DNA from: Litoditis marina
Lineage: Eukaryota; Nematoda; Chromadorea; Rhabditida; Rhabditidae
Assembly (NCBI GenBank): GCA_964036275.1
Contig: OZ038437.1
Coordinates: 9,496,304-9,560,303 of the forward strand
Reading direction: 5' to 3'
DNA length: 64,000 nucleotides
Shown here: piece by piece, positions 25,783 to 55,134 of the stretch
Position numbering within the stretch: position 1 is the first letter of the stretch
How the letters are laid out: each line of letters opens with the position of its first letter
The notes under the pieces: model-generated
Database searches by the model: none
Told to the model about the DNA's origin: nothing
The model's input: the letters and a program-made list of their open reading frames with translations, nothing else
Program-made: the position numbers and the translations under genes

Positions 25783-28700
25783 TCATCCGCAGAAAATGAT
25801 CTTGTAGTTGGAGCTCGCTCTTCCCTCGGCTCCGGAGCAGGTGAAAGTGGATGTCTGATTGTCATAGGCGTAGCTGTAGGCGGTGGGACAGTTTTCCTGA
25901 AAAAACTATGTTTTACACTCTACTTTTCCGGAACTGGAGTTTTAACGAAAAGAAACTATTCCTGCAACGAAACACAGAATTTCGGGTTTCATACTTTCCG
26001 CCTTTTACAGCACTTCAGTTTATACCAACGTGCGTGAAATTGCGGAGCCGGTGGTCCAGCTGGTTATTTTTTTTGAACTCTAACCTCTGTATAACGAATT
26101 TTATCCGGCTGTTCTCTTTTTGTTTGTGTTTTCGTTGTTTACCTTGAATAGCTTGGCGTGTTCGTTGGATCTGCAGGCCTGGGGAGTGCCGTACTGCCCG
26201 CGGCAGCACATTCTGTCGGTGTTGTACTTCAGACAACCACTCTTACAGGCCACCTGTGACAAACACACAGTAGACTGGATGATAGTGTATACATTCGTAC
26301 AGCCACCAGTTAAATTTTGAAACTACTGAATGAGAACATTGATTATTTGTTCTAGCCCTAAGCGTTATCCCTGGAGTAGCTTGAAGTGCAAAACCGGATG
26401 GTAACTGCTTATATTGGGTGCCAAATTCAAAAATTTGTTGCTCTCGCGGGAATCGAACCTGCGTTCAAACTATTCGCAGCAGGGCGCTAACCACTGCGCC
26501 CTTAGTGAACGTAACCGGCAAGCTTTGAAATCGAAGACATGTGTGCGTACACAGTGGAAAGTGAGATATACAGTACCCTCCCGCCTTTCCGTTGCGACGA
26601 TTATATGTTCGATCAATGACAGTTTTGTTTCCACATGTCAAACCACTTACGGTCCAGTTGTCCTTGTTTTTGACAGCCAAATCGGCCGGACCCTTGGGGT
26701 TCAGGTCTCCGTGGCATGAACCAGCCTTTCCGCATTTCTTCCCGTCTGCAAGTGTGAAAGAACCAAAATACCTGAGTATTATACTAGAAGAAAATCAAAT
26801 AGTCACGTAGCATTCTAATGTTGATTCGTTCACTTTGTCATTGCACTTTCGTGAGTTCTGCCGTGTTTTACATGTTTCAAATGACGTACAATTGACTGAC
26901 AATTGCCTAACAATTGACTAGTATTTCGAGCCTTCCTGGTACTTTCACTGTTTTACGAATTTCTCTTTGCTCTTTGAAAACTAAAAAAATTGGTGCCTGT
27001 CATTGACGCTATTTTTCTTTATAGCAATTGGTCAGAAATCAAGGAGCAAGGGAGAAGGGGAGGGGGGGGGGGTGTAAATACAAGCTTAGTCATTGCGATG
27101 CAAATGTGATTCTCACTTTTTCCACCAGAGAATGTTCCATCGATTGGTTCTACTGTGACAACGATGTTATGACCGTATGATTAGGTTAATGTGCTCAGTA
27201 AGAGATGTACTCAAAACCGTTTCGACCCTGATTCAAGACGGTTTTGGGTTTTCTCAGAGGGTTGGGTCATCATCAGTTGAACCCCTCTGAGAAAATGAAA
27301 ACAGGACGAAAAGACTTACTGACCGTCTTCTAGCGGAGAATTTGAGAAAAATGAACATTGCTCTAACTTCATTGCTTATTTCAAGCTCGAAAGCTGGTAT
27401 ACGTGTTTCCACCTTACCATGTAAAATGGTGGAAGGCAGTGGGGCAATTTCGCCAAACCAACTCGAGCAAAACACGCTTTTGAATTTATATTAGGTTATT
27501 TTATTTGAACAAAATATAATTGTGTCACTAGGACGTTTGGATGGTGGTATGATTAGGTTAATGTGCTCAGTAAGAGATGTACTCAAAACCGTTTCGACCC
27601 TGATTCAAGACGGTTTTGTGTTTTCTCAGAGGGTTGGGTCATCATCAGTTGAACATCTCTGAGAAAATTAAAACAGGACGAAAAGACTTACTGACCGTCT
27701 TCTAGCGGAGAATTGAGAAAAATGAACATTGCTCTAACTTCATTGCACATTTCAAGCTCGAAAGCTGGTATACGTGTTTCCACCTTACCATGTTAAATGG
27801 CGGAAGGCAGTGGGGCGATTTCGCCAAACCAACTCGAGGAAAACACGTTTTTGAATTATGACCGTTCACCAGACTGACGTCATAGAAGTCTTGGTTCCCA
27901 TGACCTCCCAGTGTAAACTCAGCTAAGGTTGCGGGAGGCTCACCACCCGTACCCCCGCATTGCACTGCGTTCTGAAAAAAACAATTAGGAATTAAAGGAA
28001 GTTTCTCTATAGAGCACAGGGTAGGTCTGATTGAGGCTTCGCGACAAGCGCACTTCATATTTTGGTAACTGCATTTCATATCGAATGCGCCATGTTACTG
28101 ATTGAGAGGTGGTTGATTGACGCTAGCGATACTGGTTAGCCGTAATCGGTTTCAATTCTGCCCAGGTTCATTTTATTGACAGAATATTAGTTTAACTAAA
28201 GCCTGATGGGTACTGTTAAAAATGTGCGCGATTTAGGTTTCACAGTCACAAGTGGTTTGACATTCGCCGATCATTGCAAACGTATAGTCGCTGCAGCTAA
28301 AAGAAGGACATACAATATGTTCAAAACTTTGAAACTGAAGAATAAGTTCACGTGGATCAAGGTTTATAAAACATACATTCGTCCTATTGTTGAGAGTGGC
28401 TGCACTGTGTTCAACTCTGAGAGAATGTGTGCAAAATCAATCGAATCAGTGCAGAATGACTTCACTAGGAAGTTATTTATGCGACTAGGAGGTTATACTT
28501 ATTGTAAAATACCATCAGCTGAGTTTAGAAATAAGAAATTGGGTCTTAACTCATTAGAGAAAAGACGTAACCTCTTTGATTTGATCATGGTTCACAATTT
28601 CGCGCCAGCCCATGCCAAAATACTATTGATTTTGTGTGTGAATAGTGTGAATGGTAAGAAGAATAAAGAGTGCCAGAAAGGTCCAGGTTAGTTGGCCTTT

Positions 28701-31700
28701 CTGGTGTTTTGCTATAATTTTTATGGTGGTTCAGTAATAGTTAGCAATGGAACTGGGCGAACAACGCTAAGATAATATACATTCCAACAAGAGTTGGATG
28801 GCCAAGGAGATACGAACACAAGCAGGAATTCCGATACGAATAAACAGACCGTGAGAACAACCAGTATTTTGTTAATGTCAACGATAACAGAAGATAACGA
28901 TACATATGTTTACTGATCACAACGTAACAACACAGGGAATATCAATAATGTATCAGGATATCGTAAGAAGTGACCTCGTATATTGTATGAAATCGTTTAG
29001 CACCTAATTCTCGTGTATAACTTGTATTCGTAGAGATTGTATGCTCGTATTCGTGAATGGTAACTCGTAAATGTGACCATCGTATATATAGACTCGTATT
29101 TTGTGGGGAGATCGTGTAACATAACAAAAAAAGAAAGAAAGACAGAAAGAAACCCGGTCAATTTCGTAACATCGTAAAAAGTGACCCGTTGTATTTGTTA
29201 AAAATGATGACGAAATCTAGCACCATCATTGCGCCAGACTCAAAATGGGTCTGGCTCAATAACGGGCGCTTTCGTCGTGTCGTGTGTGACTCGTTACGCG
29301 ACATACCCCAGAGGCATAGGTGACAACAAAGGAGTATGTAGGTGTAATAAGCTAAGAAGAGGATCGTATGTCGTATAATTGTGGGGTGCTCGTATTCGTA
29401 GTCGGTCACTTCTTAATATGGCAAACGTGCCAGCTCGTCTCGGTGTGCGTCGCTCTCACACAGCGCAGAGTGGTGTTCGGGCGATCGGCACCAGTGGCAC
29501 AGCTCCGTCTTCGTGCAGGGAGTATCGTGACGTCTGAGGCAACGGCGGCACAGGTGATTCTCGGACACAATTCGGAGGCGTTCGCTGACCCGGCGGACTT
29601 CCTTGCATCTATCGTAGAACATGTGGTTCTTACCGCAGAAAACACACGGACTCTGACGCGGCGATCGAGTGTTGCGACGAGGGCTCGTGCGTCTGTCCCG
29701 GGAACGATCCCCACGGAAACGCGGAGGAGAACGGACTCGGCAAGGAGAACGGCGAGGGGGCGAGTTCTGACGAGGGGGTCCTGCCATCGCCGGAGGAGCA
29801 CGAACCGGGGAAACATCCCGTAGAGCTACACCATGGTGACCAGCTTCCCTTAGGGGAGGAAAGTTCACCGGGCCCATGTCCATGTTCTCGTTTGGACGAA
29901 TCAGTTGGTTGACTGCCATCTGGAAATTGTCACACATTATTGTTTTCGATCGTTTCGTATTAGTCTCAAACTCCACTTGCTGAGCCCACGTACGTTTCAA
30001 AGGGGAGATGAATGCGTGATTACTATCACCCTCCCCCCTTTCCAGAGTCGTACATTGATCGTTAATCGTACACTGATTTGACTGTCCATCCCTACCACCC
30101 TTAAGGCGAGGCTGCTCGTTGATTGATGCTGTAGCCAAAACGTTCGTAATAAATGTGTCGTTGCTAGCTTCGTAACTAACCAAAATATCCTGCATTTGAA
30201 TCGTCAGCGCTGCATTCTGGGCCTTCACCTCCTGCACCGATTGTTGCATCATCTCGTTGTCTTGCTTTTGTTGCTGCAGTTGACGAGTGACCGATGTAGC
30301 CAGTTCCTCCAGCTTTCGAACCATGACATTCTTCTGACTGTCTAGACCGTCAGCGAGAGTATGAAGTCCATCCAGAGTCACTTCTTTCAGCTTTACGATG
30401 ATATCAGCCAAGTAATGAGCCAAGTAGTCCGGCTGAAAATTGGGTAATTATGCTATTGTATACCTTGGTTTTTGTAATCCCCTTTGACCGGATCATGGTA
30501 CATCGTTCGTGACAAAAGGATCGTTATTTTCTAGTACATGAAATAATGGTTACACAAATTTCTCGTAAATGTAACTTGTGAAATATAAACATTCTCTCGT
30601 AAATGAGATAGTACTCTATTGGACATTTGCTCGTAACGGAATGACGTGAAAAAAAATCGGTCGTTGTTCCTCGTGGGTTATTCGTATACGTCATGATAAC
30701 TTTCTAATATCCAACTTACGTCAGTTTGGTGTCCCACGTCGTGTAGAAGATCATCTTCCATGTCGATAGATTTGTTGAGTAGATTGTCGGAAGAGACTGA
30801 CATTTCCTGTAACATTGATATTGTGAGAGATTGTATTCGGAGGATCGTACATGATAATAGTTAATGACATATTCAAAGAAATTGTGAAACATCAAACAGA
30901 GAAATTGAAGGATCGATAATGTTACATAGTTTGTGAAATCAATCGTTATAGTAATTGTAAATTTTGTGTCTAATAATCGCGTGTCGTCTTGTACACTTAT
31001 AATCGAATGTGTGTGAGATCTACGTCTCTATTTCATCTTCGTAATATTTCACGTCCTTTTTTGCCTGTCGATCAGGCTGAGTTCGACTACTCGAACGCTC
31101 TGTGCTGATGATGTCTGTGTCAGTCGTTCGTATCTCTAATGGTATGAGATGATTAATCGATCGTTTCATTGTACCTCCGCTTGTCGTTCGTATTGTGGCG
31201 GATCGTACTACGTTGTCTTCACCTTTGTGTAGCTGTTGTATAATGGCAAGCTTCCACTTGCTCCTGGGTTGTAAATCTTCCGCGCAGATGACTACTTCCC
31301 CGATTCTTGGCTCCAGCGATGTGTACGTAGCTTCGTGGGATGACCTGTTCTTTTCGCGGAGAGTGTTCAAGTACTGTTCGTGCCATATTTTCCAAAATTT
31401 CTCTAGTCGTGCGTTAGCGGAAGTATTCCATTGTATTACTTGTTGTCTCGTGTCCATGATATTTAATGTGTATTCCTCCTCGTCCTGTCCTTTCATCAAG
31501 CTTAGAGATGATTGTGCTGATACATTAATAAGGTCGGCTGGGCTCAGAGTGATTTTATCGTTAATGTCTCCCTTCGTAGTGGTGATGGGTCTTGTATTTA
31601 ATACGCTCTCGACCTCATGCAACATTGTTTCAAATTCTCTATATGATAATGATTCCAATCGTATTGTTTTTCGTAAGCTCGATTTCACTATTCCTACCAA

Positions 31701-34700
31701 TCGTTCGTAGACTCCTCCTTTCCATGGAGATAGCGGCGTTATGAATCGCCACTCGACTCGTGTTTTCAATAGGAAATCGTTGATTTGTCTTGTTGTCGTT
31801 TTTTCCAGCATTGTATTGTTAATTATGTCTTCACCCATTATGAAGCATTTCGCGTTGTCTGATGTGATGCTGTCTGAAACTCCTCTTCTGGCGAAGAATC
31901 GACGCATTGATGCAATGAATTCCAAAGCTGAGTTGTCGGCTACCAATTCAATATGTATAGCTCTTGTTGCAAAACACGTGAATATGTGAAACCATACTTT
32001 TTGTTCGTAAGCTTGTCCTAAATAGGTTTTGTGTATCATGAATGGTCCCGCGTAGTCAATTCCTGAGTGCTGGAATGGTCGGCTGCGAGTCACTCGTTCA
32101 TGCGGTAATTGTGGGGGCAAGGGGTATTTGTATGGTCGTCCTGCTACTCGTTTGCATCGTACACATCTACAAATTACTCCCACTACGGCATTTCTTCCTT
32201 GTTTAACCCAATATTTCGTTCTAAGTCTCGTAAGTGTCATTTCTTTCCCTCCATGCAATGTCTCTGCATGAGCTCGTTGGATGATCAGTTTTGTCCAAGG
32301 ATGATTTCGTGATAGCCATATTGGTTGTCTAGCGTCGTAACTCAATTCGGAATTACCTAGTCTGCCTCTGAATCTCAGCAGACCTTGTTCGTCTATCATT
32401 GTATCATTGCTTCTAGATATGTCATGTTGAACTTCTTCCCAGTTTTCCAGTTGATGTTGTTTCGTTATCCAATTTTCGATTCCCTTGAGTTGTGTTATTG
32501 TTGATTTGTTGAATAGGTTCAATTGTGGAAGTCGTAACATCATTTCTTCTGTTCTATTCTTACTCAACTTGTCGATTATTCTCTTTTTTATGAAACGCCA
32601 TACATAAGTCATGATTCGTGTCAGTTTATCGGCGTTGTTTGTTCTATCGTATGGTATGATCGATTTTGTTTGTTCTGCCATTGTGAAATTCGTGCGTACT
32701 TCTTCTCGTATTATGGGCTCGTATGATTTGTCGGGTTTGTTGAACTTCAGCTTACTATGTGGCCATCTAGTTGTTTCATCCAATAACCATCTCGGCCCGT
32801 TCCACCAGATGTGATCATCGATTGTTTCGGCCGACAGACCACGCGTAATGCAATCCGCTGGGTTATCATTAGTGGCTACATAATGCATCTCAACCTGAAT
32901 TCCCTCTAGCTTCCACTCGTATTGTATATTGTTGATTTCGTCTACTCTATTTTTTACGAACACTTTCAGGCTACTGTCTGAATGTATCCAATAGAGGGCC
33001 GGTTGTGAGTCAGAAAAGATATGTATCTGACGTATTGGGAGTTTTAACTGTTGTAGTAGGAATTTCACCAATTTCATCCCCAGGAGACACGCCACTAACT
33101 CTAGCCTAGGGGTAGATGTCTTACCCTTTGGTTTTACTCTGGCCTTTGCCATCATCAAGTTGCTTGTTGGAGGTCTCCCGTCGTCGTAACAAGTAATCAG
33201 GTATGTACAGGCGCCGAATGCTATTCCTGATGCATCTCCAAACATGCAGATGATGTGTTTAGCATGCTCGTCTTGGGTTGTCATATGTCGTGGGATTCTC
33301 TTACTCGTGTGTTGTATTTCTTCCCATAATCCATTCCATTGTATCGTCTCGTTTTCCGTGAGTTTCTCATCCCAGTCTTTATTCCTTTTCCACAGTTCGC
33401 TCACAAACAGTTTGACTCGTATGAACACTGGAGATAGTAAGCCTAGAGGGTCGTATGTTCCGCAAATGGTACTTAATACCTTTCTCTTCGTGTCTGGATG
33501 ATTGTCTTGTTTGCTAACCCGTAGATCTAAAGTATCGTCGATTGTGTTCCACCCGATGCCCAACAGTTTGCTGTTTATCGGTTCCTTTGCTCTATCTTGT
33601 TCTTCAATTGTTTTGAATGCTTCTAACGCGTTTGTTGTAAATTCTCGTAAATTCATTCTCATGTTTGCAAAAACTTGTTTTGTCGCTTTGTAACTGTTGA
33701 TTACTTCGTTTTCTGTTGTGCACCCCACTGCTAAATTGTCCACGTAGATGTTGTCAGATAGATTGGATCCACAATCATGTTTAATTTTCTCCAGATTGTG
33801 TTGGATGGTCATCGCCAAAAGGTATGGCGATGCCGAAACCCCGAATGGTACTCTCGTATATCTCAATCTCGTTATGTTGTCACTCGTAATAGGCTTTGTT
33901 AAATCTCGTAACCATAGGATTCTAGTAGCATCTCTATCGTCTTCGTGTAATCTGACTTGGTGAAATGCTTTTTCAATATCCGATATTACCAGGTATTTGT
34001 GAGTTCGTGCTCGTAAAATGATCCCTGCTATGTCAGGTAAAATGGTTGGCCCTTGGTGAACCACTTGGTTGAGTGACACTTCCCCTCTCATATGAGCGGA
34101 AGCGTCTAGCACTACTCGTATTTTGGTTGTATTGCTCCCCGGTTTTATAACGGCTTGGTGCGGGATGTAGTATGTGACTCCTAGTGAGCGTTCGTGTGGG
34201 CATACCTCCAATATACCTGATTTTAGTTGTTCTTGGAAAATATTGTCGTATTTGTGTAACATCCCTTCTTGTTTTCCTAGTGATTTTATTAATGATTCTA
34301 ATCGTCGAAGAGCTAGTCCAAAATTGTCATTGACCGCTGGGTGATCTTGTTTGAAAGGAAATCGGACGTAAGTGAAGCCATCCCGGATTTCAGTCGTGTC
34401 CTTAAACATTTGTACCACTTTCTTGTTTATTTGATCGTCCCAGGTCGGGTCCGGGTCGTCTTTTATTCCCAATGCCTCGTATTCCCATAGCTTGTCGTAA
34501 TCGTGTCGTTCGTTTATCATCGTAAGATTAATCAAGGAATGTTCTTCTTCTTCTTCGGACTCCGATGAGCCGCATCCCGAAACTACTGGGCCGAAAATCG
34601 TTGGTGTCACCACTAAACCGGATGGCAATCGTAAACTGGTCTCCGATTCCTCGATGATATTCCAGTATTCGTCCATTCCGATCAGAATCTCTGGTTCTAC

Positions 34701-37700: not shown

Positions 37701-40700
37701 GGCATCATATACGTTCGGATCAAGGCTATCGAAGTCACTCGCTCCGACTCACCCGCAGATTAGTTTCAGCTCCGTTGTGAGCATCTAATCTACTAGACAC
37801 TAGATTACACCAGACTCGTACTTTTGTACTTTTAAGTGAAATCGTATTGGTAGGATCTCCGGCGTGTCATCTACCGACCCTCGAGGTGGAAGTTGCTAGC
37901 TATAATGGCTTCCTCATGTTGTAGCTGCTAAGGACCCCTCGACGCGATCCTTGCTTAGTCAACGATCGTAATTGTATCTTTTCGTAGAACACGTCAATGA
38001 AACAAAAACTAAAGTTGATTGTGATTTATAACCCCAAATGTACTTGGTGGGCTACCAGCACCAAGTACGCAAAACATAGTACAACAAATTAACATTTATG
38101 AATGACTCGTTCGTAGCAATTCCCAACAAAATTAACTGGCATCCGATGATCCCTCTCGTCCCAGGGTTGTGTTTTGTTTCCATCTGTGTGTTGTTTATCG
38201 CTTGTATAGTGACTGGTGTTCCTGACCTGCCACCTCAGTACCCGACCCCTAACTGGATTGTGACAGATGATGGGACTGCATAGAACTACTCCAATAGTTA
38301 TCAGTAACGCAATAACCTCATTCGTGTATCTCCCAATTTTGTATGTCGTTGTTTATTTGTCTTTTCGTTTCCCCTCGTTTATCCCTCTTTGTCGTACTTC
38401 GTTAACCAGTACTTCTGGTTGTGTTGTCTTGTATTCGTCTCATTCTTCTCGTATTTGTTGAATTTGTTGTGTGTACTCGTATTTCCAAATGACAACAACA
38501 ACCTAACGAGCTACGGAAAAGAGAGGAACAAATTGTAGAAGAAAGAGGAATAATATTGACTAAAAAAAAACCTTACCTGTCTTTGACCATGCCGGCAACG
38601 AAACAAAAAAACTGATTATAATATAACTGAGCTTACCGATGACCGCTTCTTCTTCATCATCCCGTCGACCTCGCTGTGCATCACGGTTGCGTCTTCCATT
38701 GGTCCCTCCTTTTGTTTCTTGTTGCTTGGCAGCAATAGTTCCCCGACACCTCCGTTCTAAAGAAAACGGTTGTCATTCGTTAGAAACTCGATGTGTTTTT
38801 CTCCTGATAAATGAACCCATGGTATTCGTGAAAAATCCACTATGAGATACACTCGTAACTATCGTATTCGTTCTCCGGACCATAAGGTACATAAATCCGT
38901 AATCCATTAAAAATTTGGGCATAACCCTGTTTTGTAAAAACGGTATTCGTGAACACAATAAATGACGTTCTTGTAAACTATCGTACTTGCTCTCGTAACA
39001 ATAAGATAAACAATTCGTAACCAATTCCAAAATTGGGCAGAAATCTGCTTTGTAAAACTGGTATTTGTCTATATTATACGACAAAAATTCGTAAACTAAC
39101 GCACATTTCCTCAGTTAGTTTCTCAATTTAATTCACTACCTCGTATCTATGTAGTTTGTTCGTTTCGATGTTCGGCAGTACAAATATAGTCGTATGCTTT
39201 CAACTGACCTTCTCCTTTCTCAATCGTTTTTTGCTCCAGTCTCTTCCTGACCCTCGGCAGACCTCCGAGTACGACTTGTTGAGACCTTTGTCGTTGCTAC
39301 CTTCCATGGTTGCTTCTTATGCTCGTGTCTGTAATAGTGTAGATCGTTACTTTTGTTCGTATGGGTCATCGTCTTGTTGTAGACGCATTACATCGTTTAT
39401 AATTGAACAAAAGAAATAATCGATCAATGTGACCTCAAACAATGAATGAGATTATAACATGTTAGCAGATGCACCATTTCGCGCCAGCCCATGCCAAAAT
39501 ACTATTGATTTTGTGTGTGAATAGTGTGAATGGTAAGAAGAATAAAGAGTGCCAGAAAGGTCCAGGTTAGTTGGCCTTTCTGGTGTTTTGCTATAATTTT
39601 TATGGTGGTTCAGTAATAGTTAGCAATGGAACTGGGCGAACAACGCTAAGATAATATACATTCCAACAAGAGTTGGATGGCCAAGGAGATACGAACACAA
39701 GCAGGAATTCCGATACGAATAAACAGACCGTGAGAACAACCAGTATTTTGTTAATGTCAACGATAACAGAAGATAACGATACATATGTTTACTGATCACA
39801 ACGTAACAACACAGGGAATATCAATAATGTATCAGGATATCGTAAGAAGTGACCTCGTATATTGTATGAAATCGTTTAGCACCTAATTCTCGTGTATAAC
39901 TTGTATTCGTAGAGATTGTATGCTCGTATTCGTGAATGGTAACTCGTAAATGTGACCATCGTATATATAGACTCGTATTTTGTGGGGAGATCGTGTAACA
40001 TAACAAAAAAAGAAAGAAAGACAGAAAGAAACCCGGTCAATTTCGTAACATCGTAAAAAGTGACCCGTTGTATTTGTTAAAAATGATGACGAAATCTAGC
40101 ACCATCATTGCGCCAGACTCAAAATGGGTCTGGCTCAATAACGGGCGCTTTCGTCGTGTCGTGTGTGACTCGTTACGCGACACACAAGATTGTCTTGAAA
40201 CTCTGGCGTTGATACTGCAAAGTTTTATACGTTCGAAAACTCGCGAACCAGGGGTGCAAGGTTAAAATTACGTTTCATCGCTCCCAAATTCAAGACTAGA
40301 GCACAATTTTTCACTGTCAGAGCTGGTTCTAAATACTTGAAAATTACGAAAAATAAATCAGTACCTGTTTCAGTCAAATGTATGAGAAACCATTTATTTG
40401 AAACCCTTAACTAACTAATGAATTGAACGTGTCTGTTGGAACCCATTTGAGTTTTGTAGGTCAGTGGCTTGTGTTAGTTATCTTCTTGCTCAGTTTCTGA
40501 TTTTATTGTTGTGTAAACGATCATCATTCCAACATATATATCGTTACTGTGTTGTTGTTGTGCTGTTCTCATTCCACACCTTTATCACTCTGTTCTGTGC
40601 TTTATTTCTGTTTCCATCACCTTTTTCCACTTATCATCCTATTTTTTCACGTATTCATATGCGTAATAAATCAATCAATCAATCAATCAATCAATGACAT

Positions 40701-50112: not shown

Positions 50113-51217
50113 TCACCTTGATAGGACATGTGTCTGAAAAGAAGGCTTCGCCACCTCCTTATTGTAAAATCTGTAAAAAGTGTTGCTTTTTTCAGACCAA
50201 CATGCTGCACTGATAATATCATTGATGGCCGCCCCCGAAATCAGAGCTTTTGAGGTACTCGCTGACCTAGTAGAATGTGCCATAAAGTGATCGGCAATTC
50301 CAGCCGAAGTCAGAACTTCCTTAATCCAACGTGCCACCGTACTGGCCTGTACTGGAGAAAACCTAACATACGATAACAAGAGCCTATTTTGTCCCCTGCG
50401 AAACTTTTCTGTAGCTTTCAGATAATCCGAGAGAGCAAGAACCGGGCACAGCAAAGGATCCTCCAAAAACGCCTCATATTGCGCGGTATGTGCCGCTCCT
50501 GTGCTCCGGTTCTTGTTCCTATAGTCAAGAAAAAAAGGTCCATTTTTCAGAGGAACGTTGCAAATGCTCAATCGATAACGCTGATAACTCCGACACCCTT
50601 TTTGGGGAGCAAATCGCCAGAAGAAACACGAGTTTGAGGGTGAGAGAACGCAAAGATAACGTCTTATTGCTACCCTGCCCTTTGATGTAATTCAGAACTG
50701 TATTGATATCCCATGTATCTGAATACTTAGGTTTAGGTGGATTTTTCCGAAATTGACCCTTCATGAATCGGGTAACGCAAGAATCTGAACCGAGGCCACC
50801 CGGCCTCACTTGTTCGAAGAAGGTAACTAGAGCTGCACGGTGCGAGGCCACCGAAGAGTAGGACAGCCCCTTGCGAGCTAACAGAGCTAGAAAATTACAC
50901 AGAGAAACCGTAGTCGGCAATTGGGGTAACTTGTTAGAGCTTGTAAACGCCGTCCAAGCTTTTAGAACCGAGTTATACTGTTTCAAAGTGGAAGGAGCCC
51001 AGCTAGCCAGTAGTGTGTGGATGGCATCTCTAGACAGGCCCTGGGCCTCCCAGATGCCGGCGAGATCTTCCATACTAGCAGTCGGAAGTTTTTCTGAACT
51101 AGCAGCGGGTGTGGCACCCCTTCCGGGTCCGTCACCAAGTCGATCTCCCGTGGGAGGACCCTTGGCGGCTCGGCCGACCACTGTAGAGCCAGCGGAAACC
51201 AAGGCTGAGTTGGCCAA
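50113..51217 (-). CDS. DIRS tyrosine recombinase, one frameshift
   Basis: Frame 51217-50525 continues in frame 50571-50113; the switch is at a run of seven A (50530-50536). Its start overlaps the RNase H gene by 235 nt, as in DIRS elements. N-terminal SAM-like core domain (STLKQYNSVLKAW), first catalytic arginine in SPKRVSEL, HxxR box HSTR, and catalytic tyrosine in FYRFYNK. A one-base length error in the homopolymer, real or from sequencing, is enough to explain the break; otherwise all four catalytic positions are present. Confidence 0.85.
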
Positions 51218-54200
51218 GCCGGTGTCACGAGCAACAAGGTCGCCTCGTCCTCTACTGCTTTTCGAATCACTCTGGTGATTAGGTTGAAAGGAGGAAATGC
51301 GTAACCGTAAAGGCCCAACCAGTTTTGAGCAAAGGCGTCTACCCTCCAGGAGTCGGGATCTGGGAAAAAAGAGACAAATTTATCAATTTTACAGTTGAGT
51401 CGAGTAGCAAAAAGGTCGACTTCTGGCGTACCGAAAACTTGAAAAATACGCTTAGCTACTGCCGGAGCTAGGCTGAATTCAGCCCGTTCCCTAATAGTAT
51501 TGCGGGACTCCCAATCCGCAACTTGATTGATGGCGCCCGGCCTGTATGTAGCGAAAATGCGGATGTTGCGCCCTCGTGCCCAGTCATGAAGCTCGGCCGC
51601 TAGGTCAGAAAGGGAAGGGGATTTTGTGCCTCCCATATTCCTTATGTAAGCCACCGCTGATGTATTATCTAACTCTAATAAAACATTCAGGTTATTCCAG
51701 TTAACTGCGAAGAGTTTTAGCGCGAAAAACGAGGCCAACAGTTCTAAGACGTTGATATGCAGCCTAGACTCCGCGGTCGTCCAGCGACCACCAATACGTT
51801 TACCGCAGCAGACAGCTCCCCAACCCATCTTAGAAGCATCGGAGGTAACAATGACCTCGGGAGAAAACCTAGCCCACTTGGACTCCCCCAGACGCTCAAT
51901 GTTATCTCGCCACCATTTCATCTCCGACCTGGCCGAGTCGCTGAGGACGAGGCCTCGTCGGTATGAATCTGGACTGTCGTGAACTATGACTAGGTTCAAA
52001 TCACGCTGAAGGTAACGAAGTTTTAGCGGGGCCTCGAGCACCGCCAACGTAATGAAATTGGTTTTGCCCAGAAACGCGGCCAGATCTTTTGCTATCACAG
52101 TTTCCTGTGCTAGAAGCCTAGTAGCTAGAGATTTAATGTCTAGCTTTTTCTTGTCTGGTACCGCAAAAGTAGCCTTGGCTGAGTTGAGAGTTAGACCCAA
52201 AAATTCCATTTCTTGCGTGGGTATCGTGACCGACATTTCCATGTTAACTCGAAGTCCTACTTCCGCGAAAAGGGTGAGAGCCACGTCTATGTGTTCCCTC
52301 AGTAAAGCTGGATTATTTGCGAAAATGGCCCAATCATCTAAGTAATGAATGAGCCTGATACCCTTGCTTCTCAAGAACTCAGCCAAAACCCTCATCAATT
52401 TAGTATAGACAAAGGGGGCTGTTGCCAAGCCGAACGGTAGGCAGGTAAACCTATAGAGTTCTTGTTTCCAAGAAAACGCTAGATAGGATCTATCTGATAC
52501 CTCAATATTTACTGCAAAATACGCGTCCGACATATCAAGCTTACAACAGAAGTCCTGTTTGAACACCAGATCAGGAACTAATTGTAATCCCTCCATTTTA
52601 AAATGCTCAATATCTAAGTAGGCATTCAGCGGTTTTAGATTGAATATCAAACGAGTACTTCCATCCTTCTTGGGAATGCCAAATAAGGTTGCTAGGAATA
52701 CTTCAGAGTCTGAAGGGACTCGTTCGATAACCCCCTTATGTTCCAACTTTTCCAGTTCACCAAATAAATTGCGAGGGGGGTCAGATAATTTTTTTATCTT
52801 GTGCAAGCAAGGGCGTTTCCCAGTAAACCCCAAAGCGTACCCTTTTACCCACTTCAAGATCAGAGGATCAGATGTTAAATCTCCCCATCTATCCGCAAAG
52901 TCGCAAATGCGACCTGCGATACGACTAGACCCTTGTGGAACAGGTTTAGTAGGTATAACTTGAACGTACCTCTTCTGAGCATACGAAGAATGTCCTTTGA
53001 AGGATTTCTTGTACGGCTTATAGCGACCCGATGATTGGGAAGACGAGTGGGCCGGCTTTCTGAGCTTGACCAGGGCCTTCCTGGTGGCCGAGTCCTCCGC
53101 TCCCAGCTGATCCAGCAACTCCTTGCCATAGAGTGCCGGTCTGAGCTCTTCACCTCGGTCGCCCCCCAAGATGGAGTTCTGGTCCAGACCCAACTTTTTG
53201 AAGCCGGGCATGGCCTGATGGGGCACGACACCGAGACACCTGAAGGTAAATTATAATCAACCAATATAAGTGTGCATCATCTCAACTGCTGTTATCGATA
53301 CGTCTCTATGCGAATGGTTATGTGTACCCCGCAGACTTGGGTAATTAGTTTGAAAACGTCATTCCAGTTGTACCTCGTAGCCCATATCATAGAATAATAG
53401 TATATATCCAACATCCTGCAAACAAGGGACTAGCTACTATTCACCCATGCTCTAGTTATTACTACAAGTAACTTACTTGAGCGTTTGGAGTCTTTTCGCC
53501 ACCAAGGCGTCCTTCAAAGAAGCTGAGAGAATACTTCCCAGCAGGTCGAAATACCCGACGACATCCTCACCAAAGGGCGCCCCCTGGTCGTCCGAACCGA
53601 GCTGTAATAAGTGTTGTGTTGAACTGGACAGTCTATAGCTACCCTACGGCAACCCATCACTTGTAGCCGCCTACCATGGCTGTGCTTTCAGCAACTGGGA
53701 ATAAACAACCACCACTGAATAAACCAGGTTAATAATGTCCCCTAACCGGTGGACCTGGTGCAACAATGAAACACAGTCCAACAGATAGCTCACCTTTCGA
53801 ACTAGTTCGAGAACATTCAATGCCGTCAGCAGTCCATCATAAATCGAATCGAACTCAGCCTCAGACATGACCAGGTCTGCCTGTTGCTCGGTTTGCCCTC
53901 TGAGTTCTTCATCCATCTTCGGAGGAAGTGCCAAGACCGACCTGAAAGTGCCCACTCATCCAAGTACATGAAAAATACTAATAATCACAATAATCTAGGG
54001 CCAACCGCCCTTGATTCTTATAAAAAAAAAATTTTTCCACTTAGCAGACGCCTCTGTGATTGAACAACCGAGAAATGAGCCTTGCGTGGTTGGCTATACA
54101 GACATGAAAGTAACTAGCTAAAGTGAAGTAAGCGGTAAACGCAACTCACGCGACTAGTGGAATCTCCTTCAGTAGTTTCATGCGATCAGCTGTCGGCATG

Positions 54201-55134
54201 AAGATTCCAGCCGCCCAAGCCTCGAAACGACCTCTGGCTTGCTCACCAATTTCCACTCGTGGTCTCACATCCTTCTTCGCTACCTTGGGTGGTGCGGGGA
54301 CCGCGTCCACGGCTGAAAACCAAAAACATTGATGACCGAAACCAAACCTGCCGGAGAGCACCGGACACACACCCGAAACCGAAAGAATTCATGAAAGCGA
54401 GACCAGCTCCACCAACCAAAGGACGACATCTCATTGTAATGGGAGTACCCCTACTTCTATTCATCTTTTTTCTCAATGAATAAGCCCGCTTTTTATAGCT
54501 CAAGTGGGTCTCAAGACTTTGAATGAAAACAAGTTGCTCACCTGCCACAAAGTCCTTCTTCTTCGGAATCGTGTAGTCATCCAGATTTGGGCTCCTCGGT
54601 ACCTCGCCTTCCTCCAGATCTTCCTCCTCTTGGAAACGATCTTCTTCTGGAGAAGTAGAACGGTCACGATGATAACGGCCTCTTCTTCTTCTCGAACGAG
54701 AACGAGATCGGGACCGTGATCTCGATCTCTCCCGCGACGACGATCGCCTCGATGACGAGCGAGACCGACGACGCGACGAAGAGCGGGATCTGGAATGCAA
54801 GCGATCAGTAACCCATTCCGCACTGAGATCCTATCGAACAATCTAATGAATTACTAAAAGATTCACCATTTCGCTAGTATCGAGCCCAACTAAAACCGTC
54901 TCCAATTAGTCGATTGCTCCGAGGCTAGAATGTAGCCCGAGAGAAACGTTCTGAGGATAAATCATAATTGTTAATCTAGAACCTTGGTGTCTAAATTATT
55001 TCATCCGGAAGTGTCCTAAAACCCTACCTTGAGTACCTCCTTCGTTCACGACTAGAACGATCGCGACTAGAACGACGTCTTCTTCGCACCTCTCTTGGCG
55101 AACGAGAACGCACAGTCGATTCCGAGCCGGACAT
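50983..55134 (-). CDS. DIRS Gag-reverse transcriptase/RNase H, six exons
   Basis: Exons 55134-55028, 54789-54542, 54312-54150, 53941-53794, 53601-53477 and 53239-50983 join in phase (total 1,015 codons), with GT donors and TTTCAG/TTACAG/TTCCAG-type acceptors. Residues 1-80 form a dense RS domain, then an acidic stretch, PAPPKVAKKD, a helical Gag-like part (FEAWAAGIFMPTADRMKLL...), and RT from about residue 400: IPKKDGSTRLIFNLKPLN, KLDMSDAYFAV, LPFGLATAPFVYTKLM and YLDDW. RNase H follows (TSDASKMGWGA, ELLASFFAL, LELDNTSAVAYI), then the DIRS-type tail DLFATRLNCKIDKFVS with YAFPPFNLI. Catalytic aspartates are present. Five introns in a retrotransposon mean that genomic RNA must escape splicing. 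Confidence 0.85.

What the first reader, a model, noticed from the sequence alone, without database searches (positions are those of the whole stretch)
29413..39307. BEL/Pao element with a multiply spliced accessory gene, laid out like complex-retrovirus regulatory genes
Four exons (39307-39209, 38756-38637, 30806-30720, 30432-29413) have proper donors and acceptors and all join at phase 0 into 441 codons, while the largest intron removes gag and pol. The product has basic patches, a coiled coil, an Arg/Ser tract and three zinc knuckles, and it replaces env at the 3' end. Four independent phase matches are unlikely by chance. The arrangement would require regulated export of unspliced genomic RNA, and this protein is a candidate for that control or for a second nucleocapsid. 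I know of no BEL/Pao element described with this design.
Basis: partly seen in the sequence, partly recalled or inferred. Interest (0 to 1): 0.93.

Follow-up and report, generated by a model that had tools for sequence, protein, structure and literature searches.

The report
Spliced zinc-knuckle gene in worm retrotransposons
A nematode jumping gene carries an extra gene after pol that looks spliced and encodes a basic protein with three zinc knuckles; the same gene is found in many relatives, and it may work like the proteins that let some retroviruses export their unspliced RNA.

Summary
The window holds a young BEL/Pao LTR element (28598-40182, minus strand; identical 706-bp LTRs, TSD CACAA) in a nematode genome. 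All four proposed exons are present, open and phase 0. Comparison carries the claim. A 3' gene with the same make-up was read in 11 of 12 elements (pol identity 39-100%) and sits at the end of 5 of 120 listed database pol proteins (Ancylostoma, Haemonchus, Necator, Caenorhabditis). Its exon 3/4 boundary is phase 0 in 6 of 6 families where I could delimit it. Two further families have in-phase leader exons; in one these vary at 1 of 414 sites against 14 of 797 outside. The 3' knuckles resemble those of other elements' 3' genes more than their own gag's in 6 of 7 elements: an old, separate lineage. In two relatives the gene follows env, so it did not simply replace env. Best reading: an element-encoded nuclear RNA-binding protein from spliced mRNA, working like CERV of Cer1. 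Splicing and function are inferred; exons 1-2 are the least certain part, and initiation at exon 3 is a live rival.

The parts
39477..40182 (-). 5' LTR (706 bp, identical to the 3' LTR)
28598..29303 (-). 3' LTR
28593..28597 (.). target-site duplication CACAA (other copy 40183-40187)
39459..39476 (-). primer-binding-site-like stretch TGGTGCATCTGC... next to the 5' LTR; the two relatives read have TGGTGCATCGGC
   Evidence: tRNA not identified by a call
39209..39307 (-). proposed exon 1 (33 codons from ATG), donor gtcagt
   Evidence: 0 differences in the 69 nt present in the C16 copy; weak similarity to exon A of the C3 family (9 of 2000 shuffles as high, best of 6 comparisons)
38637..38756 (-). 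proposed exon 2 (40 codons; basic KKQK and KKKR patches), acceptor ctttag, donor gtaagc
   Evidence: 4 of 120 sites differ in the C16 copy, 2 synonymous and 2 not
30807..38636 (-). proposed intron 2 (7830 nt), containing gag and pol
36132..37175 (-). first part of gag up to an in-frame stop
31020..36131 (-). rest of gag (DUF1759, NC knuckles) and pol (protease, RT, Peptidase_A17, integrase, DUF5641), same frame as 36132-37175
30720..30806 (-). exon 3 (29 codons), acceptor ttacag, in-frame ATG 3 nt inside, donor gtaagt
30433..30719 (-). intron 3 (287 nt)
29413..30432 (-). exon 4 (339 codons + stop): heptad-rich N-terminus, SPLKR motif, Arg/Ser/Pro-rich tract, three CCHC-type knuckles

Best explanation
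The 3' gene is a genuine accessory gene of a widespread group of nematode BEL/Pao elements. It is expressed from a subgenomic mRNA in which splicing removes gag and pol, and encodes a nuclear RNA-binding protein: basic patches for nuclear entry, a coiled-coil-like part for self-association, and a gag-NC-like triple zinc knuckle that recognises the element's own RNA. Its most likely job is to mark unspliced genomic RNA for nuclear export, so that it can be translated as gag-pol and packaged, as CERV does for Cer1 and Rev does for HIV. Shown: the gene, its conservation, the conserved phase-0 exon 3/4 layout. Inferred: splicing, the joining of exons 1-2, nuclear location, export.
For: The gene was read in 11 of 12 elements. 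A query with the C4 relative's exon 4 product finds a match within 8 kb downstream on the same strand for 30 of 74 pol places; it misses two families seen by eye, so this is a lower count. 5 of 120 listed database pol proteins carry a late triple knuckle. Exon 3/4: acceptor, open exon, donor and acceptor all phase 0 in 6 of 6 families delimited, plus an equivalent boundary in L051. Leader exons in phase 0 in the C4 and C3 families; C3-family exons, delimited before the copies were fetched, vary at 1 of 414 sites (synonymous) against 14 of 797, p 0.026, no indels in exons. Exon 4 differs at 4 of 1020 sites between the window and C16 copies against 33 of 2610 non-coding, p 0.016. T-type knuckles cluster apart from gag knuckles: 2 label changes against a shuffled mean of 11.4, 0 of 500 as low. 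The leader has 35 ATGs in 2300 nt, so gag needs a special route anyway. Precedent: CERV (PMC10309623; PMC3315495).
Against: No RNA data. Exons 1-3 of the window family show no constraint between the two copies (all four exons together 10 of 1293 against 33 of 2610, p 0.19). Five of six cross-family exon 1-3 comparisons show no sequence similarity. Leader exon chains arise by chance often. Donors in the C3 family include gcaagc and gttgga, which are weak. In 6 of 6 delimited families exon 3 has an in-frame ATG 0-9 nt after its acceptor, which suits translation starting there. L058 has one 509-aa frame with no intron seen. An NES-like pattern is uninformative (458 of 500 shuffles have one). No nuclear or export assay exists.
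Confidence: 0.45

Rival explanations
1. The 3' gene is real but starts in exon 3: its mRNA is made by SL1 trans-splicing, or by splicing of a non-coding leader, onto the exon 3 acceptor. Exons 1-2 are then not part of the protein (about 367 aa in the window).
For: In-frame ATG 3, 9, 0, 3, 0 and 0 nt after the exon 3 acceptor in 6 of 6 delimited families. The genome has 873 places matching SL1 with up to 1 mismatch, 0 for the reversed control. Cer1's spliced mRNA occurs with and without SL1 (PMC3315495 passages). Window exons 1-2 show no constraint between copies.
Against: In L051 the exon after the first acceptor has no ATG for 34 codons (first at nt 102), which demands an upstream coding exon. 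C3-family leader exons look constrained. A cis-spliced leader and exon 3 start are not exclusive.
Confidence: 0.35
2. The product is a second nucleocapsid or particle component, or an RNA chaperone in reverse transcription, and splicing serves only to express a 3' gene.
For: Knuckles share the gag NC layout. Coexists with env in two relatives, so it is not tied to loss of infection.
Against: Separate knuckle lineage, added coiled-coil-like and Arg/Ser/Pro-rich parts and basic patches in leader exons are more than a nucleocapsid needs; gag already carries NC in the same element.
Confidence: 0.3
3. Some other nuclear or silencing-related role, for example binding or titrating host small-RNA or splicing factors through the Arg/Ser-rich part.
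For: Arg/Ser/Pro-rich tract in the window, L048, C. remanei P0040 and H. contortus P0017 products.
Against: Nothing specific points to it.
Confidence: 0.15
4. Chance open frames in a dead element.
For: Gag is broken in this copy; exon chains in leaders are common by chance.
Against: Conservation of the gene, its position and exon 3/4 layout across diverged families and species.
Confidence: 0.03

Closest known systems
CERV of Cer1 (C. elegans Ty3/gypsy element; PMC10309623, PMC3315495)
   Same: Nematode LTR element; [quoted passage not shown] NLS-like basic patch and coiled-coil-like region; no env-like product.
   Different: Ty3/gypsy, not BEL/Pao. CERV exons 1-3 share gag's reading frame, while here the leader exons lie upstream of gag. 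CERV has a possible C4 finger and a G-protein-like domain, not a gag-NC-like triple knuckle.
BEL/Pao elements with phlebovirus-like env (Tas, Cer7 type, hookworm Atlas; names partly recalled, Atlas from PMC9094657 passages)
   Same: Same gag-pol frame and pol domains; relatives in this genome carry PF07245 env.
   Different: The window element lacks env; the knuckle gene is not mentioned in the passages I saw of PMC9094657 or PMC3118150.
Rev/Rex of complex retroviruses (recalled; HTLV-1 Rex review seen only in a listing)
   Same: Proposed logic: small nuclear protein from spliced mRNA frees unspliced genomic RNA.
   Different: No arginine-rich motif homology tested; knuckles instead; different family.
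Extra ORF3s of bdelloid LTR elements (PMC5408684, passages)
   Same: Non-env ORF3 after pol, described there as typically expressed from spliced messages.
   Different: Those encode DEDDy, GDSL and other domains; 'zinc' and 'CCHC' do not occur in that text.

Membership tests
BEL/Pao LTR retrotransposon | Pol with Pao-type peptidase, RT, integrase and DUF5641 order | tested here: met
BEL/Pao LTR retrotransposon | LTR pair with short target-site duplication and adjacent PBS | tested here: met
CERV family | Sequence or fold homology to CERV (H, M, G domains) | not tested
   CERV letters not available; a structure job for exon 4 never finished
CERV-like / Rev-like function | Product of a spliced mRNA that skips gag-pol | tested here: inconclusive
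   phase-0 exons and splice sites conserved; no RNA data
CERV-like / Rev-like function | Nuclear protein required for export of unspliced RNA | not testable with these tools
   needs bench work
Gag nucleocapsid (triple CCHC) relative | Three knuckles in the gag-NC layout | tested here: met
   one pattern matches both gag and 3' domains; no Pfam knuckle hit; weak LIN-28 knuckle match E 0.068
Gag nucleocapsid (triple CCHC) relative | Recent copy of the element's own gag | tested here: not met
   own gag ranks 8th to 33rd of 33; best match is another 3' gene in 6 of 7, gag in 1 (L057)
env | Phlebovirus G2 fusion domain | tested here: not met
   absent from exon 4; present in L059 and L060

The most novel reading that the evidence does not exclude
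Nematode BEL/Pao elements turned a gag-nucleocapsid-like domain into a nuclear export factor: a separate, old gene whose knuckles read the same RNA signals as gag, made from a spliced mRNA. This would be an export system independent of CERV and Rev, kept across strongylid and Caenorhabditis elements, in some lineages alongside env and in others after its loss.
Probability: 0.3. Interest if true: 0.82.

Novelty: new variant of a known kind. Interest (0 to 1): 0.62.

Why it matters
If true, a third retroelement family has solved the problem of exporting intron-containing genomic RNA with its own protein, and the domain source (gag NC) would be visible. It also gives annotators a named target: a conserved gene that is now hidden inside pol gene models or labelled only 'zinc knuckle' in worm genomes.

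Tried and rejected
Processed (spliced) copies: none seen. Leader-exon and 3' queries gave 2 and 2 places, all unspliced; the C3-family leader gave 5 main places, unspliced; the C4-family exon 3-intron-exon 4 query gave 3 places, all with the intron. The C2 copy at 3.18 Mb has no listed pol but keeps the intron, so it looks like a deletion, not a retrocopy.

Homologues of exon 4 alone: none at E 0.001 among 1331 candidates. With a 5-row alignment, one protein, P0006, which lies letter for letter inside the L049 product, so it adds no new species.

NES search: uninformative. tblastn of exon 1 in L052 gave a hit at E 0.049, but in a frame other than the phase-0 candidate, so I did not use it. One monophyly test of the 3' knuckles: not rejected (p 0.208), not shown (24% of bootstraps).

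Literature: nine searches answered. In their listings I saw no paper on a spliced accessory gene of a BEL/Pao element. The library lacks most subscription papers, including the Tas paper.
Full report
What is there. The window is 64 kb of contig C1 of a 262-Mb genome. The 22-nt SL1 sequence (recalled) matches 873 places with up to one mismatch and the reversed control none, so the host is a nematode. On the minus strand lies an LTR element with identical 706-bp LTRs and CACAA on both sides. Its pol carries Peptidase_A17, RVT_1, Integrase_H2C2 and DUF5641, with DUF1759 in gag: BEL/Pao. Gag and pol share one frame, cut in this copy by one stop in gag; the second copy, on C16, is open for 2058 aa. 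Leader-exon DNA and 3' DNA each match two places in the genome; the LTR matches six.

The proposed gene. Exons 39307-39209, 38756-38637, 30806-30720 and 30432-29413 are open, phase 0, and total 441 codons. The splice sites are acceptable. As evidence from one sequence this is weak for exons 1-2: at thresholds 4/2/4, 42 of 200 shuffled leaders contain at least one such chain and 14 of 200 reach the observed number; at 3/2/3, 112 of 200 and 5 of 200.

Relatives in the same genome. A 600-aa pol piece finds 74 places at 35-100% identity. I read the 3' side of 12 elements. Ten without env (window, C16 copy, L048, L049, L050, L051, L057, L058, L061, L062; pol 43-100%) have a knuckle gene after pol. 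L059 (39%) has env with Phlebovirus_G2 (E 2.9e-92) and, after about 1.06 kb that I could not read, the same kind of gene (L069). L060 (37%) has env (E 1.1e-85); I did not read beyond it. A search with the L048 exon 4 product puts a match within 8 kb downstream of 30 of 74 pol places (25 of 45 at 43% identity or more, 5 of 29 below); one of these lies 7.2 kb away and may belong to a neighbour; 6 places have an upstream match only, which would be gag. The query missed L057 and L058, so the count is a lower bound.

Exon layout. In six families (window, L048, L049, L050, L061, L062) exon 3 runs from an acceptor to a donor in frame and exon 4 opens in frame at the next acceptor; exon lengths are multiples of three in 6 of 6. 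L051 has an equivalent boundary further into the protein. I could not delimit an exon 3 in L057 or L058; L058 is one 509-aa frame. In all six, an in-frame ATG lies 0-9 nt after the exon 3 acceptor. In L051 there is none for 34 codons. The anchors were chosen by me with the frame in view, so the phase counts are not blind.

Leader exons. The C4 relative (L052) has candidates MARRST...KEHQ and INGRMVDGTPAKRRR...SEK, the C3 relative (L053) three candidates, all phase 0. Two carry KRRR- or KKRR-type basic patches, as window exon 2 carries KKQK and KKKR. In the C3 family these exons, delimited on one copy before the others were fetched, vary at 1 of 414 sites (synonymous) against 14 of 797 outside, Fisher p 0.026, with no indels in exons; one of the four other copies covers only the first 799 of 1211 bases, and the two C2 copies are near-duplicates. 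Against this, five of six cross-family comparisons of exons 1-3 show no sequence similarity, and between window and C16 copies exon 2 differs at 4 of 120 sites (2 synonymous, 2 not), exon 3 at 3 of 87 (2 of 84 in the trimmed alignment), and the four exons together at 10 of 1293 against 33 of 2610 non-coding (p 0.19). Exon 4 alone is constrained (4 of 1020, p 0.016), like the second gag-pol part (15 of 5109).

Other species. A pol-region search of 5.8 billion proteins gave 187 matches, 120 listed, led by Trichostrongylus (45%), Ancylostoma, Haemonchus and Necator. By pattern, 80 of the 120 have a triple knuckle and 5 have one far C-terminal of RT: P0009 (A. duodenale), P0012 and P0017 (H. contortus), P0040 (C. 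remanei, after env) and P0114 (N. americanus). Gene models ending after pol or env say nothing on the gene.

Origin. A tree of 34 knuckle domains needs 2 label changes between gag and 3' types, against 11.3-11.4 in shuffles (0 of 500 as low); 65 columns resolve little, one clade is neither shown (24% of bootstraps) nor rejected (AU p 0.208). In 6 of 7 elements the 3' knuckle's best match is another 3' knuckle; the exception is L057. On a pol tree of 40 rows the env-less knuckle elements, with Ancylostoma and Haemonchus ones and 13 rows of unknown state, form one side of a starred branch (98); P0114 falls in the env group. So the gene is probably older than the loss of env in the window's clade. 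That is an inference from few env-bearing rows.

How it may work. Cer1 of C. [quoted passage not shown] CERV is nuclear and needed for genomic RNA export (PMC10309623: abstract, passages and sections 6 and 9 read; PMC3315495: passages). The window gene has the same logic and place with a different protein. Basic patches, a coiled-coil-like part and knuckles of gag-NC layout suggest a nuclear protein that binds the element's own RNA. Export is my preferred role; second nucleocapsid and exon 3 initiation are serious rivals.

Limits. No RNA reads, no assay, no structure (job unfinished), no leader sequences beyond three families, and no CERV sequence for comparison.

Noticed in passing
50525-54800 (-): A second retroelement: RVT_1 (E 1.9e-21) followed by a frame with a phage-integrase SAM-like domain, weak Dam match, and an Arg/Ser-rich ORF upstream: DIRS-like.
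   Followed up: partly
37172-37534 (-): Upstream ORF with a hydrophobic C-terminus whose stop overlaps the gag ATG (ATGA); the end of the frame is kept in the C16 copy.
   Followed up: partly
L012 178-882 and 1238-1943: The C16 copy has two LTRs about 355 bp apart at its 3' end; the insert was not identified.
   Followed up: no
G000:C4:20340596 and C4:20457640: LTRs at 95-96% identity without matching internal sequence within the fetched flanks: likely solo LTRs.
   Followed up: partly
G000:C1:2913470, C1:1614919, C4:41749399, C17:11253486, C16:11779607: Elements sharing both ends of the C4-family leader but not the stretch with candidate exons 1-2: swapped leader segment or non-autonomous relatives; could not be fetched.
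   Followed up: no
28206-28691 (+): The element sits in a 161-aa ORF that looks LINE-like to the eye; Pfam gave no match at E 0.01.
   Followed up: partly
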